From positions 1-11,648 of the forward strand of contig JALSIF010000263.1 in the NCBI GenBank assembly GCA_026981635.1: a DNA stretch of 11,648 nucleotides, written 5' to 3'. Shown piece after piece: positions 5,110 to 11,648 of the stretch. Each line of letters starts with the position of its first letter. The stretch's first letter is position 1. The DNA comes from JALSIF01 sp026981635 [NCBI: bacterium]. GTDB lineage: Bacteria > 4484-113 > JALSIF01. A program made the translations under genes and the position numbers. The notes under the pieces are model-generated. The model ran no database searches, was not told where the DNA came from, and saw nothing but the letters and a program-made list of their open reading frames with translations.

Positions 5110-5135
5110 AGCTTCCTCCTGATCTCTGGTGTGAA

Positions 5136-5481: not shown

Positions 5482-6525
5482 TCAGACCGAGGTCTCCTCC
5501 AGCAGGCGGGGAAGATCGCTGAGCAGGCCGGAGCGGTGGAGGAGGTCCCTAACCTCCTCACGGCTCAGGGGCTCCTGCTCCAGGGTGGAGTAGGCCCGGA
5601 GGGGCCGGTTGGCCACCGGGGCGAAGGGGTCAATTACGAAGTAGTCGTCAAACTCCTCCGCCACCAGCGACTCCTCGGGGCTCATCAGCTCCTCGTGGAG
5701 CTTCTCCCCCGGCCTTACTCCGATAGTCTCAATCTCAATCTGGCTGGGGCTAAAGCCAAAGACCGGGGCAAGCTCCTCAACCAGCACCTCCAGAAGGTCG
5801 GCGATCCTAACCACCGGCATCTTGAGCACATAGATCCGACCGCCCTCGCCCAGTCCCCCTGCCGCCAGCACCAGCTCGGCCGCCTCCCCCAGGGTCATGA
5901 AGAAGCGGCGCATCTCCGGGTGGGTGAGGGTGACTGGCCCCCCCTTCCTGATCTGGCGAACGATGGTGGGGATGACCGAGCCGCGGCTGGCCAGCACGTT
6001 GCCGAAGCGCACCACGGTAAAGGTGGTCTTGCGGCTCCCCTTCCACCGCTCGGCGCTGACCACCAGTCGCTCTGCCAGCAGCTTGGTGGCCCCCATGGTG
6101 TTTCGGGGGCTGACCGCCTTGTCGGTGGAGACCGCCACCACCCGCTCGGCCTCCGCCTGGAGGGCCGCCTCCACCAGGTTCTGGGTACCGATGACGTTGG
6201 TCTTTACCGCCTCAAAGGGGTTGTACTCACAGGCGGTGACATGCTTGAGGGCGGCGCAGTGGAAGACCACCTCCACCCCCTCCATGGCCCGCATCAGCCG
6301 CTCCCGGTCGCGGATGTCGCCGATGAGCAGCCTGACCCGCTCATACAGCCCCTGTTCCCTGAGCTCCTCAGCTAGGAGGTGCTGGGCAAACTCGTTGCGG
6401 GAGAAGACCCGACACACCCTGGCCCCCGAGGCCAGCACCCGCCAGAGGAGCTCCCGGCCGATGGAGCCGGTGCCGCCGGTGATGAGCACCGTCCGGCCGG
6501 TGAGGTAGCCTAGGGAATACTCCAT
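5482..6525 (-). CDS. UDP-sugar 4,6-dehydratase-like short-chain dehydrogenase (CapD/PglF-like core, soluble)
   Basis: This 347-residue enzyme is an extended SDR of the polysaccharide-biosynthesis family, which removes water from UDP-GlcNAc-type sugars to give 4-keto-6-deoxy sugars. The nucleotide-binding motif TGGTGSIG is at residues 16-23, FHCAALKHV near 88-96, and the active-site block STDKAVSPRNTMGATK at 133-148 supplies T134, D135, K136, M144 and K148. VRPGEKLHEEL follows near residue 280 and is typical of the family. Methionine replaces the usual SDR tyrosine, as known for the large membrane dehydratases of the PglF/WbpM type, yet here the N-terminal membrane region is absent. The start at 6525 is chosen because TAGACT lies 7 bases upstream, as in its neighbours; the open frame extends to 6621 but would overlap the divergent gene. 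It may feed flagellin or surface glycosylation (inference). Confidence 0.87.
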   Translation of the reverse strand: MEYSLGYLTGRTVLITGGTGSIGRELLWRVLASGARVCRVFSRNEFAQHLLAEELREQGLYERVRLLIGDIRDRERLMRAMEGVEVVFHCAALKHVTACEYNPFEAVKTNVIGTQNLVEAALQAEAERVVAVSTDKAVSPRNTMGATKLLAERLVVSAERWKGSRKTTFTVVRFGNVLASRGSVIPTIVRQIRKGGPVTLTHPEMRRFFMTLGEAAELVLAAGGLGEGGRIYVLKMPVVRIADLLEVLVEELAPVFGFSPSQIEIETIGVRPGEKLHEELMSPEESLVAEEFDDYFVIDPFAPVANRPLRAYSTLEQEPLSREEVRDLLHRSGLLSDLPRLLEETSV

Positions 6526-6532
6526 CACGATA

Positions 6533-6538
6533 AGTCTA
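6533..6538 (-). promoter_or_regulatory. Predicted -10 box (TAGACT) for leaderless transcription of the SDR gene
   Basis: On the minus strand TAGACT ends 7 bases before the ATG at 6525, so the expected transcription start falls on the start codon. No close ribosome binding site is present; the nearest GGAG is about 17 bases away. No recognisable -35 box. This is the weakest hexamer match of the five start-proximal cases. Confidence 0.4.
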
Positions 6539-6585
6539 TCGGCTCCCTCGCTCGCCGGTTGACCCTCCGCCGGCCTGGGGCTCGT

Positions 6586-6594
6586 TGCTAGAAT
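6586..6594 (+). promoter_or_regulatory. Predicted extended -10 box (TGC-TAGAAT) for leaderless transcription of the amidase gene
   Basis: TAGAAT (6589-6594), preceded by TGC, is an extended -10 element. Seven bases (6595-6601) separate it from a GTG at 6602, placing the expected transcription start on that GTG. TTGACC at 6559-6564 is 24 bases upstream of the hexamer, too far for a normal -35 spacing. The same GCTAGAATGCC string recurs at 11439-11449 before another start. Confidence 0.55.
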
Positions 6595-6601
6595 GCCGCC
6601 G

Positions 6602-7552
6602 GTGAGTGAGCCCAGCCCCAAGCGCCGCTACACCGTCGCCCTGATCCAGTTCTCCCCCCGCCTGGGGGCAGTGGACGACAACCTCTCCACCATTGAGGAC
6701 TACCTCCGCCAGGCCCGTGAGCGGGGCGCAGATTTGGCCGTCTTCCCTGAGCTTGCCCTCTCCGGCTACCTGGTCCAGGACCTGGCCGGCGAGGTATACC
6801 TCACCGAGCTCCCCCGCCCGGAGCGCAACCGCCGCTGGTGGGACCGGCTGCTAGACCTCTCCCGCACCCTCCCCCTGATAGCCGGCTTGCCCTACCGCGA
6901 CGAGAGCGGCCTCTACATCGCCTCCGCCCTGCTTGCGGAGGGCAAGCTCCTTGCCCTCCACCGCAAGGTATATCTCCCCACCTACGGCCTCTTCCAGGAC
7001 CAGCGCTTCTTTGACCGCGGCCAGCTCCCCACCCTGGCCGCCACCGGGGCCTTCGGCCGGCTGGGCCTGCTCATCTGCGAGGATGCCTGGCACCCCCTGC
7101 TGGTAAACGCCACCGCCCTGATGGGGGCCGAGGTGCTGGTCATCGTCTCCGCCTCTCCCGCCGGCGGCGCCGCCACCGAGGTGGCCTATTCTGCCGAGTG
7201 GTGGGCCACCTTCTGCTCCGTCTACGCCAAGCTCTTCGGCTGCTACGTCCTCTTTGCCAACCGCACCGGCAGCGAGGACGGGGTGATCTACTCCGGCTCC
7301 AGCCGGGTGGTGGACCCCTTCGGCCGGGTGGTGGTGGAGGCCGACGGCAAGGAGGGCAGACCCGCCCCCCTGGAGGACGGCATGCTCATCGCCGAGCTTG
7401 ACCTGGAGGAGGTCTTCCGCGCCCGCACCATCCTCCCCCTGATGAGTGACGAGGACCCCCGCCTGCTGAGGGAGATCTTTGACCGCCTGACCGCCGGCTG
7501 GCAGAGTTTGCCGCCGGCCGCCTCCGGCAAGGCCCAATCAGGTGGAAGCTGA
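6602..7552 (+). CDS. Nitrilase-superfamily carbon-nitrogen hydrolase (amidase)
   Basis: The protein belongs to the carbon-nitrogen hydrolase (nitrilase) superfamily, which cleaves amides or nitriles with a Glu-Lys-Cys triad. All three can be placed: E50 in FPELALSGY, K122 in LHRKVYLPTYGLFQDQRFF, and C159 in LLICEDAW. The C-terminal part (FANRTGSEDGVIYSGSSRVVDPFGRVV) closes the four-layer fold. The K-block resembles the amidase domain of glutamine-dependent NAD synthetases, but no synthetase domain follows, so this is a stand-alone enzyme of 316 residues with unknown substrate. I prefer the GTG at 6602 because it is 7 bases after a TAGAAT box; the ATG at 6593 overlaps that box and would add three residues. 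The next gene overlaps its end by 11 bases, so the two form one operon and may act together. Confidence 0.88.
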   Translation: MSEPSPKRRYTVALIQFSPRLGAVDDNLSTIEDYLRQARERGADLAVFPELALSGYLVQDLAGEVYLTELPRPERNRRWWDRLLDLSRTLPLIAGLPYRDESGLYIASALLAEGKLLALHRKVYLPTYGLFQDQRFFDRGQLPTLAATGAFGRLGLLICEDAWHPLLVNATALMGAEVLVIVSASPAGGAATEVAYSAEWWATFCSVYAKLFGCYVLFANRTGSEDGVIYSGSSRVVDPFGRVVVEADGKEGRPAPLEDGMLIAELDLEEVFRARTILPLMSDEDPRLLREIFDRLTAGWQSLPPAASGKAQSGGS

Positions 7553-8294
7553 GCCGGCCAAGCCCCTCAGGGTGGGACTGCCCAACTACACCTTGGCCGA
7601 GCCCTACGCCCGCGCTTTCCCCGGGGCCCTGCGCCTGCCTCCCGCCGAGCTAAACCAGCTTGCCGCCCAGAACAAGTTGGATCTGGTCCTCACCAGCTCC
7701 CTGGCGGTGATTGAGCTGGGCCTTTTCCCCCATCCCCTCTATGGCATCGGGTGTTCTGGTGAGGTGATGAGCGTTCTTCTGGTGGGTGCGCCGCCTGAGG
7801 AGTGCGAGCGGCTGGTGCTGGACCCCGCCTCCCGCACCTCCAACGATCTCGCCCGGCTGGTGGTCCAGAAGCTCAGGGGTTCCCTTCCCCCCACCTCACA
7901 CCGTCCTGCGGGAGTGTCCATTGATCCCTCTCCAGGGGAGGCCTGGGTGGTGATCGGCGACCCCGCCCTGGGCCTCTCAGGCGATCTCCCCCGCCACGAC
8001 CTGGGCCGGCTGTGGAAGGAGCTCACCGGCCAGGGCTTCATCTTCGCCCTCTTTGGCCTCAGGGACGCCGGCCACCTGGAGGAGGCGAGCCGGGCCATCG
8101 CCCAGGCCCTGGAGAGGGCCGAGGAGGAGGAGTTTGCCTCCCCGGTGGAGATGCTGAGTGAGAAGGTGGGTCTGAGCAGGCGGGCCGCCCGCCACTACTT
8201 CGGCCAGTGCCTTGACTACCGCCTCACCGCCGACCACTGGCGAGGGCTGGAGCTCTTTATGGAGCTCCGCTCAGCCCTTTCCCCCTATCTCTGA
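7542..8294 (+). CDS. mqnA: MqnA-like chorismate dehydratase, futalosine pathway of menaquinone synthesis
   Basis: MqnA removes water from chorismate to give 3-enolpyruvyl-benzoate, the first step of the futalosine route to menaquinone. The 250-residue product follows the family from end to end: LRVGLPNYTLAEPY at the start, then KLDLVLTSSLAVIE (about 45-58), IGCSGEVMSVLLVG (69-82), LDPASRTSNDLARLV (93-107), AWVVIGDPAL (134-143) and DLGRLWKELTGQGFIFALFGLR (153-174). The two-lobed periplasmic-binding-protein fold is expected, and no signal peptide is seen. At 250 residues it is slightly short. It starts with GTG inside the end of the amidase gene, with only a weak upstream AAGG, so translation may depend on coupling. 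No other mqn gene lies in the window. Family membership is clear; the exact reaction is inferred. Confidence 0.85.
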   Translation: MEAEPAKPLRVGLPNYTLAEPYARAFPGALRLPPAELNQLAAQNKLDLVLTSSLAVIELGLFPHPLYGIGCSGEVMSVLLVGAPPEECERLVLDPASRTSNDLARLVVQKLRGSLPPTSHRPAGVSIDPSPGEAWVVIGDPALGLSGDLPRHDLGRLWKELTGQGFIFALFGLRDAGHLEEASRAIAQALERAEEEEFASPVEMLSEKVGLSRRAARHYFGQCLDYRLTADHWRGLELFMELRSALSPYL

Positions 8295-8334
8295 GATCTT
8301 TTACTTCCCCGACCAGGTGGCAGGGGTGGGAGCC

Positions 8335-8784
8335 TTAGCCTGCCGCCCCCGACTGGACGATGTTTAGTTCAAGCTCCATCGGGGCGTTGAGCAGCCGGGA
8401 GATGGGGCAGCCCGCCTTGGCCGCCTCCACCGCCTGGCGGGCCTTGGCCTCGTCGCTCCCCGCCGGCACCACCACGGTGGCGGTAAGCTTGGCCAGGGTG
8501 ATGGTGGGTGCCCCCTCCACCATCTCAAACTTTATGGTGCACCCTGCCTCAATCTTCTCCGGGGTAATGCCCACCTTGCCCAGCTCGGCCGAGCTGGCCA
8601 TGGCGAAGCAGGCCGCGTGGGCCGCCGCCACCAGTTCCTCCGGGTTGGTCCCCGCCTCCTCGCCAAACCGCTTGGCGAAGTTGTAGGGGGTGTCAGAAAG
8701 CACCCCGCTCTCACTGCTCACCCAGCCCTTTCCGTCCTCCAGGCCGCCTTGCCAGACGGCGTTTGCCTTGCGCAGCTTCTCCAT
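8335..8784 (-). CDS. osmC: OsmC/Ohr-family peroxiredoxin-like protein
   Basis: OsmC proteins are small dimeric thiol peroxidases that reduce organic peroxides. The 149-residue product has the two conserved cysteines: C59 in VAAAHAACFAMA and C126 in AKAGCPISRLL. The active-site partners R39 (AKRFGEE) and E50 (TNPEELVAAA) are in place, with TNPEEL matching the OsmC motif. The N-terminus (KANAVWQGGLEDGKGWVSSESG) is closer to OsmC than to Ohr. An extra cysteine (C82) is not part of the family pattern. The ATG at 8784 has a strong GAGGAGG ribosome binding site 6 bases upstream, so this gene has a normal leader, unlike its leaderless neighbours. It is convergent with mqnA and divergent from the HAD gene and appears to be a single-gene unit. 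Confidence 0.93.
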   Translation of the reverse strand: MEKLRKANAVWQGGLEDGKGWVSSESGVLSDTPYNFAKRFGEEAGTNPEELVAAAHAACFAMASSAELGKVGITPEKIEAGCTIKFEMVEGAPTITLAKLTATVVVPAGSDEAKARQAVEAAKAGCPISRLLNAPMELELNIVQSGAAG

Positions 8785-8799
8785 CGTGCTCCTCCTCAG

Positions 8800-8847
8800 A
8801 AATAGTTAGTCAGAAGGTAGTTTATCAGTCCCATCCCCCTGATGGGG
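8800..8847. repeat. Intergenic element, copy A (shared with 11160-11203)
   Basis: The 21-base core 8800-8820 matches 11160-11180 at 17 positions, and all four differences are transitions. In both copies the core is followed, after 12-14 bases, by a short C4/G4 inverted repeat (here 8835-8847, with TGAT inside). Copy A lies between the divergent osmC and HAD genes and covers the predicted osmC promoter. Confidence 0.5.
8819..8827 (-). promoter_or_regulatory. Candidate extended -10 box (TGA-TAAACT) for osmC
   Basis: On the minus strand TAAACT preceded by TGA would start transcription near 8811 and leave a leader of about 27 bases containing the GAGGAGG ribosome binding site. The hexamer matches TATAAT at four of six positions and no -35 is evident. 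It lies at the edge of the repeated element at 8800-8847. Confidence 0.3.
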
Positions 8848-8867
8848 AATGATAAGCTCCCCCTTCC

Positions 8868-9542
8868 GTGGCAGAGCTCAGGGCAGTCATCTTTGACCTG
8901 GACGGCATCGTGGCGGAGACCGAGCCCATCCAGATCGCCTGCTACACCGAGGCCTTCCGCCGGGTGGGCTTTCCCCTCTCCGCCGAGGAGTACCGCCAGA
9001 AGGTGGTCCTTGCCGGCATGCCCACCCGCGAGCTTTTTCGCTCCCTGGGTGGAAACGACCAGCGCTTTGAGGAGGAGCTTCTGCCCCTCAAGGACCGCCT
9101 CTACCGGGAGCGGGTTAGGCGGGAGCTCTCCCCCCGCCCCGGCCTCACCGAGCTTCTGGACGACCTTTCCCGCCACCGGGTAAAGACCATCCTGGCCACC
9201 GCCAGCCGCCGCAGGAACGCCCACTTCATCCTGGAGACCCTGGGCCTTGCCGACCGCTTCCTAGCCATCTACGGCCTAGAGGATGTGCTTCGCCCCAAGC
9301 CCGACCCGGAGGTATTCCTGGTCATCCTTACCGAGCACCGCCTCTCCCCCGATCAGGTTATCGCCCTGGACGACGCCCCCAAGGGGGTGAGGGCGGCGGC
9401 CGGCGCCGGCATAAGGTGCGTTGCCGTTCCCACTCCGGCCACCGCCGACGGCGACTTCAGCCTGGCCTGGCGCCGGGTGGAAAGCCTCACCGAGCTTAGC
9501 TACCGCTGGCTGGTGGAGGAGCTGGAGAAAGACCTAGGGTAG
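8868..9542 (+). CDS. HAD-family hydrolase, beta-phosphoglucomutase-like
   Basis: This 224-residue protein is a HAD subfamily IA enzyme, most like beta-phosphoglucomutases and small-sugar phosphatases. Motif I is FDLDGIVAETE with nucleophile D10 and acid D12. The helical cap follows (about 19-85). Motif II is ILATASRRRN with T111 or S113, motif III is K144 in RPKPDP, and motif IV is IALDDAPKGVRAA with D168 and D169, where most relatives have EDS. The FPLSAEEYRQKVVLAGMPT segment is a typical cap. Substrate cannot be assigned. The start is GTG at 8868; no other in-frame start precedes the FDLDG motif, and there is no ribosome binding site. GATAAG at 8851-8856 may be a -10 box giving an almost leaderless mRNA. 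Its last 9 bases overlap the end of the opposite-strand phosphoribosyltransferase gene. Confidence 0.88.
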   Translation: MAELRAVIFDLDGIVAETEPIQIACYTEAFRRVGFPLSAEEYRQKVVLAGMPTRELFRSLGGNDQRFEEELLPLKDRLYRERVRRELSPRPGLTELLDDLSRHRVKTILATASRRRNAHFILETLGLADRFLAIYGLEDVLRPKPDPEVFLVILTEHRLSPDQVIALDDAPKGVRAAAGAGIRCVAVPTPATADGDFSLAWRRVESLTELSYRWLVEELEKDLG

Positions 9543-10025
9543 GCCCCCTGTCTCTTCCCCCTCCCCCTGCTTCTTGAGGTAGCCCCGCTCCCAGAAGAAC
9601 TTGGGCACGCCGGCAAGGCAGCGCACGAAGATCAGCCCCTCCACCCTCACCCCCCGTTCGCAGTCAATGTAGAGGCAGGCGGGGACCGTCTCCGCCCAGG
9701 GGCAGGCCGCCGCCACCTTGCGCAGCGCCCGGCGCATGCTCCTTCCGGTCCAGGCCGAAGTGTCCACCACCGCGATGCGCTCAAACTGGCGCGGGATGTG
9801 GTCCAGGTTAAAGAGGGTAAACATGGGAAGACTTAGCTGGTTGGAGAGATAGACCGCCACCATCAGCCCCGAGCGGTGGATGCCCACCACCGTATCAAGG
9901 GGACCTTGGGAAGAGAGCTTCTCCCTGAGCTTCCCTAGGTCCAAAAACCACTGCTCGGGTGAGATGCGGCTTGATCCGGCCTCATCCTGCGGCTGCCTTT
10001 CCTTCTCTGCCTCGACTGATTCCAT
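9534..10025 (-). CDS. Phosphoribosyltransferase-like protein
   Basis: The 163-residue product appears to have a type I phosphoribosyltransferase fold. DTVVGIHRSGLMVAVYLSNQLSLPMFTL (about 44-71) resembles the first strand-loop-helix that binds pyrophosphate, and IAVVDTSAWTGRSMRRA (about 84-100) occupies the place of the PRPP loop, whose usual form is VVDD(x)3TG(x)T. The second acidic residue is Thr here (T89) and the final Thr is Ser (S96), so binding may be altered. A C-terminal FFWERGYL motif is distinctive. The first 22 residues are polar and probably disordered. The base it would use, if any, is unknown. The ATG at 10025 is 7 bases after a TAGAAT box and lacks a ribosome binding site. It ends tail to tail with the HAD gene, overlapping by 9 bases, and is divergent from the threonine aldolase gene. 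Confidence 0.7.
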   Translation of the reverse strand: MESVEAEKERQPQDEAGSSRISPEQWFLDLGKLREKLSSQGPLDTVVGIHRSGLMVAVYLSNQLSLPMFTLFNLDHIPRQFERIAVVDTSAWTGRSMRRALRKVAAACPWAETVPACLYIDCERGVRVEGLIFVRCLAGVPKFFWERGYLKKQGEGEETGGLP

Positions 10026-10032
10026 CGGGGGA

Positions 10033-10038
10033 ATTCTA
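10033..10038 (-). promoter_or_regulatory. Predicted -10 box (TAGAAT) for leaderless transcription of the phosphoribosyltransferase gene
   Basis: On the minus strand TAGAAT ends exactly 7 bases before the ATG at 10025. The intervening bases are TCCCCCG, with no ribosome binding site, so transcription should start on the initiation codon. No -35 box is recognisable in the GC-rich upstream DNA. Confidence 0.55.
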
Positions 10039-10068
10039 GGTGGCCGGGCGGGCCTGCGCCCTTGGGGC

Positions 10069-10074
10069 TATTAT
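10069..10074 (+). promoter_or_regulatory. Predicted -10 box (TATTAT) for leaderless transcription of the threonine aldolase gene
   Basis: TATTAT, one base from the TATAAT consensus, ends 7 bases before the ATG at 10082. The 7 bases are CGGCCCC, without a ribosome binding site. The hexamer stands out in otherwise nearly pure G+C DNA. It is divergent from the TAGAAT box at 10033-10038, only 30 bases away. Confidence 0.55.
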
Positions 10075-10081
10075 CGGCCCC

Positions 10082-11146
10082 ATGGAGCTTCCGGTGGACC
10101 TTCGCTCTGACACGGTAACCAAGCCCTCCCCCGAGATGCGCCGCTGGATGTATGAGGCCGAGGTGGGCGACGACATCTACGGCGAGGACCCCACGGTGAA
10201 CCTCCTTCAGGAGGAGGTGGCCGAGCTTTTGGGGACCGAGGCCGCCCTCTTCGTCCCCAGCGGCACCATGGCCAACCAGGTCGCCCTCAGGGTCCACACC
10301 CAGCCGGGCGACGAGGTCATCGCCCACCGGGACAGCCACTGCATCCACTACGAGACCGGCGCCCTGGCCGCCCTTTCCGGCTGCCAGGTGGCCGCCCTGG
10401 AGGGGGAGGGGGGGCTGTTTACCCCCGACGATGTGAGGCAGGCGGTGCGTCCCAGCCGCCCCTACCTGCCCCGCAGCACCCTGGTGGTGATGGAAAACAC
10501 CCACAACCGGGGCGGCGGCACCATCTGGCCCCCCGAGCAGTTTGCCGCCGTCGCCGAGGTGGCCCACGAGCTGGGCCTTATGGTCCACCTGGACGGCGCC
10601 CGCCTGATGAACGCCGCGGTGGCCCTGGGCGTGCCCCCCACCACCTGGACTAGGCATACCGATTCGGTGGCCATCTGTTTCAGCAAGGGCCTTGGCGCTC
10701 CCATCGGCTCGGCGGTGGCAGGTTCTAGAGACTTCATTGAGGAGGCCCTCAGGGTGCGCAAGATGTTTGGCGGTGCCATGCGCCAGGTGGGGGTGATCGC
10801 CGCCGCCGCCCGCTATGCCCTGAGGCACAACGTTTCGCGCCTGGCCGAGGACCACCGGCGGGCAAGGGAACTGGCCCGGGGACTTGGGGAGATTGACCAG
10901 GAGCTTGGCGGTGGCCTCCTTTCAGTACCCGAGCCCCAGACCAACATCGTCATGGTGGACCTCTCCCCGCAGCGCCTGCCCGGGGCGGAGGAGCTAGCCC
11001 AGCGCCTCAGGTCGGAGCAGGTGCTGGTGGGCGCCTTTGGCCCCCACCGCATCCGCATGGTGGTCCACCTTGACCTCACCGACCAGTCGGTGGCCTTTGC
11101 CCTTGAGGTGTGGCACAGGGTGCTGGGAGAGGTGAGAAAAGGTTAG
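10082..11146 (+). CDS. ltaE: Low-specificity L-threonine aldolase
   Basis: This PLP enzyme splits L-threonine or allo-threonine into glycine and acetaldehyde. The 354-residue product is full length. Family landmarks are [16 protein letters not shown] at the start, [13 protein letters not shown] (28-40), the PLP-site loop [12 protein letters not shown] (58-69), the SHCIHYETG block with H89 (85-93), [13 protein letters not shown] (138-150), HLDGAR with D171 and R174 (169-174), and the PLP lysine K202 in [12 protein letters not shown]. The [10 protein letters not shown] block fits a low-specificity type. The start at 10082 is 7 bases after TATTAT; the open frame reaches back to 10040 but the extra 14 residues ([14 protein letters not shown]) lie across the promoter and do not match the family. 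It is a single-gene unit followed by a structured intergenic region. Confidence 0.95.
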
Positions 11147-11159
11147 TTCGCAAGTGGCT

Positions 11160-11203
11160 AAATAGTTAGCCGGGAAGTAGAAATTATTTGTGCCCCAGTG
11201 GGG
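11160..11203. repeat. Intergenic element, copy B (shared with 8800-8847)
   Basis: Core 11160-11180 matches 8800-8820 at 17 of 21 positions. It is followed by an AT-rich 12-base stretch and a CCCC-AGT-GGGG inverted repeat (11193-11203). In this copy the left part of the core also forms a GGCTAA/TTAGCC stem (11156-11171). It lies just after the threonine aldolase stop codon and is not beside an osmC-like gene. Confidence 0.5.
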
Positions 11204-11266
11204 TATTAACAGGTGCGTGGTCCTCTCTCTCTGCCGCCCCCACGGCTGGACCACGACTTCCTCCGA

Positions 11267-11289
11267 CAGCCCCGGTAACCCCGGGGCTG
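11267..11289. repeat. Perfect inverted repeat, 9-bp stem
   Basis: CAGCCCCGG (11267-11275) is the exact complement of CCGGGGCTG (11281-11289), with the 5-base loop TAACC. One A-run (AAA) follows on the plus strand, with no T-run. Confidence 0.75.
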
Positions 11290-11294
11290 AAATT

Positions 11295-11312
11295 GCGTCC
11301 CCGCGGGGACGC
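11295..11312. repeat. Perfect 18-base palindrome
   Basis: GCGTCCCCG (11295-11303) is followed directly by its complement CGGGGACGC (11304-11312). As DNA this is a symmetric dimeric-protein-type site; as RNA it would fold with a small loop. Confidence 0.8.
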
Positions 11313-11326
11313 CCTTCCTTCCTCCC

Positions 11327-11351
11327 CACGGTCCCCACCCTGGGGACCGTG
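11327..11351. repeat. Perfect inverted repeat, 11-bp stem with 3-base loop
   Basis: CACGGTCCCCA (11327-11337) pairs with TGGGGACCGTG (11341-11351) around CCC. It is the longest stem in the window. There is no downstream T-run, so an intrinsic terminator is not clear. Confidence 0.8.
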
Positions 11352-11440
11352 CTCCTAACCAGTCTTAGACTTAACCCACCATGGGCCGATCTGTCAAGTC
11401 TCCCCCTCTCCCCAAGGGAGGGGCGGCCCTCTGGTGGGGC

Positions 11441-11446
11441 TAGAAT
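11441..11446 (+). promoter_or_regulatory. Predicted -10 box (TAGAAT) for leaderless transcription of the last gene
   Basis: TAGAAT ends 6 bases before the ATG at 11453. The context GCTAGAATGCC is identical to that before the amidase gene at 6587-6597. There is no ribosome binding site. An overlapping ATG at 11444 is in another frame. Confidence 0.5.
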
Positions 11447-11452
11447 GCCCCC

Positions 11453-11648
11453 ATGCCGGCTGAGGTTTCCCCGCTCATCTCGGTGGAGTTTTCCCACCGC
11501 GGAACCACCCGCCGGATCACCGCTCCCCTGCCCCCTTTCCTCACCGCCGACTTCCTCCTCCGCCAGTGGGAGCTGGTCGGGGAGGTAGCCCCGGCCGAGG
11601 GGAGGGTGCTGGTGGTGGGGATGGGGGGGAGCATCCTGCCCACCTCCG
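11453..11648 (+). CDS. Unrecognised protein, N-terminal part (runs off right edge)
   Basis: From the ATG at 11453 the frame is open to the window end, giving 65 residues that start MPAEVSPLISVEFSHRGTTRR. Codon use is strongly biased to G or C at the third position, as in the neighbouring real genes. The last residues, RVLVVGMGGSILPTS, form a hydrophobic strand followed by a glycine loop, as at the start of a Rossmann-like or SIS (sugar isomerase) domain; GMGGS is common in bifunctional phosphoglucose/phosphomannose isomerases, but this is not enough to name the protein. The start is supported by the TAGAAT box 6 bases upstream. There is no signal peptide. Confidence 0.6.
   Translation, partial: MPAEVSPLISVEFSHRGTTRRITAPLPPFLTADFLLRQWELVGEVAPAEGRVLVVGMGGSILPTS

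What the first reader, a model, noticed from the sequence alone, without database searches (positions are those of the whole stretch)
6533..11455. A shared -10 hexamer ending 6-7 bases before the start codon of five genes: predicted leaderless transcription
Seen directly: TAGACT-7-ATG (6525, minus), TAGAAT-7-GTG (6602, plus), TAGAAT-7-ATG (10025, minus), TATTAT-7-ATG (10082, plus), TAGAAT-6-ATG (11453, plus). None of these starts has a usable ribosome binding site. Known: bacterial transcription starts about 7 bases after the -10 box, so the RNA 5' end would be the start codon; leaderless genes with a TANNNT box at this distance are documented in Deinococcus and Actinobacteria. Other genes here (HDOD, flgB, fliF, fliH, osmC) carry strong ribosome binding sites, so this organism appears to use two initiation modes, with leaderless starts at the first genes of short housekeeping units. 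No -35 boxes are visible at these five sites.
Basis: partly seen in the sequence, partly recalled or inferred. Interest (0 to 1): 0.62.

Follow-up and report, generated by a model that had tools for sequence, protein, structure and literature searches.

The report
Genes starting right after their promoter
Several genes in this uncultured bacterium have their promoter's -10 box six or seven bases before the start codon, so their messages probably begin at the start codon with no leader; this is a known way of starting genes, found here across a small, little-sampled bacterial phylum.

Summary
The five boxes are real and where stated. They belong to a genome-wide signal: among 341 gene starts from a 461-kb sample of the own genome, TANNNT occurs 44 times at spacer 6-7 against 6.3 expected. 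TANNN[ACG] and TGANNT show no peak, so ORF-bounding stop codons do not explain it. E. coli shows no peak, D. radiodurans MP1 a small one. All 10 held genomes of the phylum have more TAGAAT-N6/7-RTG than TAGAAT-N12/13-RTG (593 versus 214). Three of four genes tested keep the box in relatives (15 of 19), the fourth does not (0 of 6). No -35 is detectable; boxed genes seldom carry a Shine-Dalgarno 5-mer (4 of 75 versus 80 of 266). Best reading: sigma-A, -10-driven leaderless transcription beside SD-led initiation, in about 11-16% of genes. This is a further lineage for a well-documented mode. 'First genes of short units' is only partly right: divergent starts are richest, but close tandem genes have boxes too. 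No RNA 5' end was examined.

The parts
6533..6538 (-). -10 box TAGACT, 7 bases before ATG 6525 (4 before the in-frame GTG 6528) of a Polysacc_synt_2 gene
   Evidence: the arrangement is not found at the expected start in 6 of 6 relatives
5482..6525 (-). polysaccharide biosynthesis / NAD-dependent epimerase gene
   Evidence: PF02719, E 4.6e-104
6589..6594 (+). -10 box TAGAAT, 7 bases before GTG 6602
   Evidence: TATAAT at spacer 6 in 6 of 7 evaluable relatives
6602..7552 (+). carbon-nitrogen hydrolase gene (probably the glutaminase half of an NAD-synthetase-like protein of relatives; the NadE name is recalled)
   Evidence: PF00795, E 1.2e-35; best matches lie in open frames of 540-580 aa in 7 of 9 relatives, the other 2 are cut by contig ends
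10033..10038 (-). -10 box TAGAAT, 7 bases before ATG 10025
   Evidence: box at spacer 6-7 in 5 of 6 relatives
9534..10025 (-). phosphoribosyltransferase-like gene
   Evidence: PF00156, E 3.8e-4, below the curated cut-off
10069..10074 (+). -10 box TATTAT, 7 bases before ATG 10082
   Evidence: box at spacer 6-7 in 4 of 6 relatives, the other 2 have a leader with an SD-like sequence, by eye
10082..11146 (+). beta-eliminating lyase / L-threonine-aldolase-like gene
   Evidence: PF01212, E 8.3e-102; the aldolase name is recalled
11441..11446 (+). -10 box TAGAAT, 6 bases before ATG 11453
11453..11648 (+). start of a gene cut by the contig end; no Pfam match to its first 65 aa
5136..5141 (-). TAGAAT 26 bases before ATG 5109 of the HDOD gene: the same box with a leader
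5115..5120 (-). AGGAGG Shine-Dalgarno sequence of the HDOD gene (the second initiation mode)
8853..8858 (+). possible further box TAAGCT, 9 bases before GTG 8868 (HAD hydrolase)
   Evidence: weaker match and longer spacer

Best explanation
The hexamers are -10 elements (consensus TAgAAT) of ordinary housekeeping-sigma promoters placed so that transcription starts at, or 1-3 bases before, the start codon. The mRNAs are leaderless or nearly so, and are translated from a 5'-terminal AUG/GUG without a Shine-Dalgarno sequence. The same organism uses SD-led initiation for other genes, some with the same box further upstream (HDOD). Shown here: the box, its spacing, its enrichment in a sample of the genome and across the phylum, its recurrence at the same spacing in relatives, the lack of a -35, and the near-exclusion with SD. 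Inferred: that it acts as a promoter, that the RNA starts at the codon, and how it is translated.
For: Own genome: TANNNT 44 at spacer 6-7 versus 6.3 expected, 341 starts; TAGAAT 16 versus 0.8; TANNN[ACG] 17 versus 17.1; TGANNT 3 versus 1.8. Non-stop boxes TA[CT]NNT are also enriched, 12 versus 2.3. Relatives: G003 21 versus 7.2 (309 starts), G006 21 versus 4.7 (281 starts). Controls with the same script: E. coli K-12 2 versus 4.4 (147 starts); D. radiodurans MP1 5 versus 1.1 (99 starts). Whole genomes of the phylum: 10 of 10 have more TAGAAT-N6/7-RTG than TAGAAT-N12/13-RTG, 593 versus 214 (own 36 versus 5); reversed pattern at 6-7: 91. Orthologues: box at spacer 6-7 in 4 of 6, 6 of 7 and 5 of 6 relatives for three genes, while the 20 bases upstream of the box are 25% identical between genera, i.e. 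random. SD 5-mer in 4 of 75 boxed versus 80 of 266 unboxed genes, P = 1.7e-6; boxes at control spacers show no such effect, 4 of 19 versus 80 of 322. Sigma-A of relatives is close to solved sigma-A proteins over its whole conserved part (one tested, G003; E 1.6e-100), including the stretches that read -10 and -35 (region assignment recalled).
Against: No RNA data. The fourth gene (6525) lacks the box at the expected start in 6 of 6 relatives. Starts come from a home-made coding-score gene finder, and several candidate starts per gene were allowed. There is a second peak at spacer 9 (22 versus 3.2), which means either 2-3-base leaders, misplaced starts, or a residue of the in-frame-TAG effect. 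The SD exclusion is partly forced, because a box at spacer 6-7 occupies the place of an SD. The own genome's sigma-A was not found (0 matches to PF00140; the assembly is 85% complete).
Confidence: 0.87

Rival explanations
1. The box is a real -10, but the true start codon lies further downstream, so the transcript has a short leader.
For: Starts are predicted; at 6525 and 6602 two in-frame starts compete; the spacer-9 peak could be 2-3-base leaders.
Against: Sharp peaks at 6 and 7; box-to-start spacing is 6-7 in most relatives for three gene families; no SD after the box at the five sites.
Confidence: 0.08
2. Artefact: TAG/TAA upstream of an ORF is simply the stop codon that bounds the longest ORF.
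For: At spacers 6 and 9 the TAG of the box is in frame with the start; TAG is the commonest stop in this genome sample.
Against: Spacer 7 puts TAG out of frame yet is enriched (20 versus 3.2); TA[CT]NNT is enriched; TGANNT and TAG/TAA without a final T are not clearly so.
Confidence: 0.02
3. The hexamer is a translation or regulatory element rather than a promoter.
For: It sits where a ribosome binding site would sit.
Against: Its sequence is that of a bacterial -10 (T1, A2, A5/C5, T6), the same TAGAAT lies before the leader of the SD-led HDOD gene, and in Deinococcus the equivalent motif was shown to act as a promoter and not to be replaceable by an RBS (PMC12340547: first part of Results, one Results sub-section and the Discussion read).
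Confidence: 0.03

Closest known systems
The -10-motif adjacent to ORFs of Deinococcus-Thermus (PMC12340547; parts read)
   Same: TANNNT about 6-7 bases before the start, working without a -35, coexisting with RBS-led genes, in nearly a third of D. radiodurans genes
   Different: Here the lineage is an unnamed phylum, the commonest box is TAGAAT (TACACT in D. radiodurans), the estimated fraction is lower (about 11-16%), and no experiment backs it
TA-led (leaderless) genes in bacteria (Zheng et al. 2011, PMC3160421; abstract and one Results section read)
   Same: TA-like signal about 10 bases upstream, TAnnnT form in high-GC genomes, around 20% of genes in Actinobacteria
   Different: The window's lineage cannot be matched to a listed group because the tools give it no name
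Bacteria with leaderless transcription in GeneMarkS-2 (Lomsadze et al. 2018, seen only as cited in passages of PMC9581028)
   Same: Leaderless genes mixed with SD genes in one genome; predicted in 21.6% of bacterial species, up to 40% of transcripts
   Different: None in kind that I could see

Membership tests
Leaderless genes led by a TANNNT -10 box | TANNNT hexamer with T1, A2, T6 before the start | tested here: met
   Enrichment vanishes if position 6 is not T (17 versus 17.1 expected)
Leaderless genes led by a TANNNT -10 box | Fixed distance of about 6-7 bases to the start codon | tested here: met
   24 at spacer 6 and 20 at spacer 7 versus 3.16 per position; a further peak of 22 at 9
Leaderless genes led by a TANNNT -10 box | Genome-wide use, not a few loci | tested here: met
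   341 starts from 100 contig stretches plus the window, about a quarter of the genome; 10 of 10 genomes of the phylum for TAGAAT
Leaderless genes led by a TANNNT -10 box | No Shine-Dalgarno sequence at these starts | tested here: met
   0 of 5 in the window; 4 of 75 boxed versus 80 of 266 unboxed genes, partly forced by overlap
Leaderless genes led by a TANNNT -10 box | -35 element dispensable or absent | tested here: met
   4 of 48 upstream regions with 4 or more of 6 matches to TTGACA at spacing 15-19 versus 6.0 in shuffles; dispensability itself not tested
Leaderless genes led by a TANNNT -10 box | Transcription start at the start codon | not testable with these tools
   No RNA data
Leaderless genes led by a TANNNT -10 box | Box required for transcription | not testable with these tools
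   Needs a reporter

The most novel reading that the evidence does not exclude
In this genome leaderlessness has led to fused gene ends and starts: the TAG stop codon of one gene is itself the first half of the next gene's -10 box (TAGAAT, TAGACT, TAGGCT with the next start 9-10 bases after the stop), giving each gene of a tightly packed cluster its own promoter in about 15 bases. In the own sample 5 of the 7 TAG stops with a candidate start at that distance complete a TAGNNT box. Divergent pairs with two leaderless promoters can be as short as 35 bp in all (L153). Against a strong version: in the relatives sampled no TAG stop does this (G003 0 of 3, G006 0 of 1; one TAA stop does in G006), one TGA stop in the own sample also has the T, and T at stop+6 is about as common after TAG (41, of at most 230) as after TGA (19, of at most 120), so the genome's preference for TAG is not explained by it.
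Probability: 0.15. Interest if true: 0.5.

Novelty: new member of a known kind. Interest (0 to 1): 0.33.

Why it matters
It adds a sparsely sampled, apparently uncultured phylum to the bacteria that mix leaderless and SD-led initiation, and gives a simple rule (TANNNT 6-7 bases upstream) for correcting start codons in its genomes. It also shows that orthologous genes keep or lose a leader within one phylum, which makes the gain and loss of leaders traceable.

Tried and rejected
ORF-boundary artefact from in-frame TAG: rejected by the out-of-frame spacer 7, TA[CT]NNT, TGANNT and TANNN[ACG] controls. Extended -10 (TGN before the box): 5 of 48 leaderless boxes, not a clear enrichment. A hidden -35: none. 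TAG read as sense: downstream frames after TAG look like separate operon neighbours by their lengths and N-termini, and the window's FliG- and FliF-like frames end at TAG where I would expect (judgement from memory). TAG preference caused by promoter fusion: not supported. Naming the phylum: the tools give G handles no names; the best named matches of the 10082 protein are mostly records labelled Phycisphaerae or Planctomycetota at up to 57% identity, which does not place the genome. Spacer 9: left open. The gene at 11453 was not searched in relatives (cut by the contig end, no Pfam match).

In the orthologue test I left out the weak aldolase match of G001 (E 8.7e-4), the partial G002 hydrolase, the second hydrolase copies in G001 and G007, and the weaker epimerase paralogues; the G001 hydrolase lies at a contig edge and was not counted. 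The second hydrolase copies in G008 and G009 were looked at, have no box, and were not counted. For the epimerase, two relatives (G006, G007) have TAAACT 7-8 bases before an ATG about 19-26 codons upstream of the expected start; these were not counted. In one search the aldolase loci L076-L078 were left out.
Full report
What was checked. The window is the whole of contig C263 of a 1.745-Mb, 317-contig, 85%-complete assembly. Genes: epimerase-type polysaccharide gene (6525), carbon-nitrogen hydrolase (6602), phosphoribosyltransferase-like (10025, below Pfam's cut-off), threonine-aldolase-like lyase (10082), unknown (11453).

Genome-wide test. A simple coding-score gene finder that ignores upstream signals gave 386 genes, 341 of them with 80 readable bases upstream. 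TANNNT occurs 24 times at spacer 6 and 20 at spacer 7; the mean at 20-70 bases upstream is 3.16 per position. For TAGAAT the figures are 10, 6 and 0.39. The final T is essential: TANNN[ACG] shows 17 against 17.1. TGANNT shows 3 against 1.8 and the non-stop class TA[CT]NNT 12 against 2.3, so an ORF-bounding stop codon is not the cause. There is a further peak at spacer 9 (22), which I could not resolve between 2-3-base leaders and misplaced starts. The first 60 contigs plus the window show the same peak. The same script finds no peak in 200 kb of E. coli K-12 (2 against 4.4, 147 starts) and a modest one in 150 kb of D. radiodurans MP1 (5 against 1.1, 99 starts).

Phylum-wide test. All 10 held genomes of the phylum (own included; one class, four families by the handles) have more TAGAAT-N6/7-RTG than TAGAAT-N12/13-RTG: 593 against 214 in total, own genome 36 against 5; the reversed pattern at 6-7 gives 91. 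The margin is smallest in G005 (41 against 26) and G003 (65 against 39). Profiles from 400 kb each of G003 and G006 repeat the peak: 21 against 7.2 and 21 against 4.7.

Orthologues. Counting relatives only, a TANNNT box at spacer 6-7 before an in-frame start stands upstream of the aldolase gene in 4 of 6, of the hydrolase in 6 of 7 evaluable, and of the phosphoribosyltransferase in 5 of 6 genomes; of the epimerase gene in 0 of 6 at the expected start. More than one candidate start per gene was allowed. Between boxed orthologues from different genera the 20 bases upstream of the box are 25% identical (random), while the box is 77-95% identical. Three of its six positions are fixed by my selection, so only the remaining ones and the spacing are independent evidence. 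Where the box is not adjacent, the gene can carry a leader instead, judged by eye: the G003 hydrolase has TAGAAT, then a GGGAGGAG sequence before its ATG, and the aldolase of G005 and G009 has a box further up and an AGGAG-like sequence. Leaders are thus gained or lost within the phylum.

Promoter anatomy. In 48 own boxes of the form TANN[AC]T at spacer 6-7, TAGAAT is commonest (17), then TATAAT (7). Position 3 is G in 54%, position 4 A in 77%. C is frequent before the start (71% at -2), compared with 43% over the 184 starts. The starts are GTG in 31, ATG in 15 and TTG in 2. Matches to TTGACA are not above shuffles (4 of 48 with 4 or more of 6, 6.0 expected). A sigma-A-type PF00140 match was found in 8 of 10 genomes, not in the own assembly or G001; the G003 protein aligns to solved sigma-A proteins over its conserved part.

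Two modes and context. Boxed starts (spacer 6-9) carry an SD 5-mer in 4 of 75, unboxed in 80 of 266 (P = 1.7e-6); boxes at control spacers 14-17 show no such relation (4 of 19 versus 80 of 322). The exclusion is partly forced by overlap. Boxes by context, with control spacers in brackets: divergent with gap up to 250, 26 of 68 [6]; divergent above 250, 1 of 14 [0]; tandem gap under 30, 17 of 84 [1]; tandem gap 30 or more, 23 of 131 [10]; contig edge 8 of 44 [2]; all 75 of 341 [19]. The net fraction is about 16% for spacers 6-9 (75 minus 19 of 341), or 11% for spacers 6-7 alone (44 minus 6.3 of 341).

Compared with what is known. Leaderless, TANNNT-led genes are documented in Deinococcus-Thermus, Actinobacteria and many other groups (PMC12340547 and PMC3160421, parts read; passages in PMC9581028 citing a prediction for 21.6% of bacterial species). 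The case meets the sequence-level features of that kind that I tested; the transcript start itself was not tested. It is therefore a further lineage for a known mode. Searches for leaderless initiation with metagenome-assembled genomes and SD (0 papers), with candidate phyla (3 papers, listing seen only) or with Planctomycetes (10 of 46 listed) showed no title on such a group, but the group's name is not known to me, so I cannot say that it is unreported.

Side results. Named outgroups show the pattern to differing degrees; among 17, a record labelled Phycisphaerales (44 versus 3 reversed) and one labelled Myxococcales (34 versus 2) stand out, while one labelled Sedimentisphaerales shows none (61 versus 62) and the actinobacterium Thermocrispum has few TAGAAT matches at all (5 versus 0). 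In 13 of 76 evaluable outgroup aldolase loci a TANNNT, TACCCT in 6 of them, stands at spacer 6-7, against 3 of 76 at control spacers. TAG is the commonest stop codon in the own sample (230 TAG, 120 TGA, 36 TAA), and in 5 tandem pairs it doubles as the first half of the next gene's box; the two relatives sampled show no such TAG case.

Noticed in passing
own-genome sample (L081-L180 and window): TAG is the commonest stop codon: TAG 230, TGA 120, TAA 36; relative G003 147/101/70, but G006 87/167/36. The abstract of PMC10471768 (its start seen in a listing) says that TGA is used more than TAG in most eukaryotes and prokaryotes.
   Followed up: partly
L091, L095, L161 (three pairs): The TAG stop codon of the upstream gene is the TAG of the next gene's TAGNNT box, with the next start 9-10 bases after the stop; the upstream gene in L095 is a weak prediction. 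No such TAG case in the G003 and G006 samples.
   Followed up: partly
L153; window 6525-6602 and 10025-10082: Back-to-back leaderless promoters in very short divergent gaps: 35, 76 and 56 bp between start codons, boxes 10, 50 and 30 bp apart; two polymerases could hardly bind at once (inference). Both starts boxed in 4 of 34 divergent pairs of the sample, control 0 of 34 (the 10025-10082 pair was measured by hand).
   Followed up: partly
L003, L015, L027, L041, L051, L061 and seven others (aldolase loci): Outgroup aldolase genes, many in records labelled Planctomycetes, have TACCCT or another TANNNT 6-7 bases before a start in 13 of 76 versus 3 of 76 at control spacers.
   Followed up: no
window 6602-7552: This carbon-nitrogen hydrolase gene ends after 316 aa, while the best matches in 7 of 9 relatives lie in open frames of 540-580 aa, i.e. 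it seems to lack a second (probably synthetase) half.
   Followed up: no
window 7542-8294: A menaquinone-biosynthesis (VitK2_biosynth) gene overlaps the end of the hydrolase gene; futalosine type recalled.
   Followed up: no
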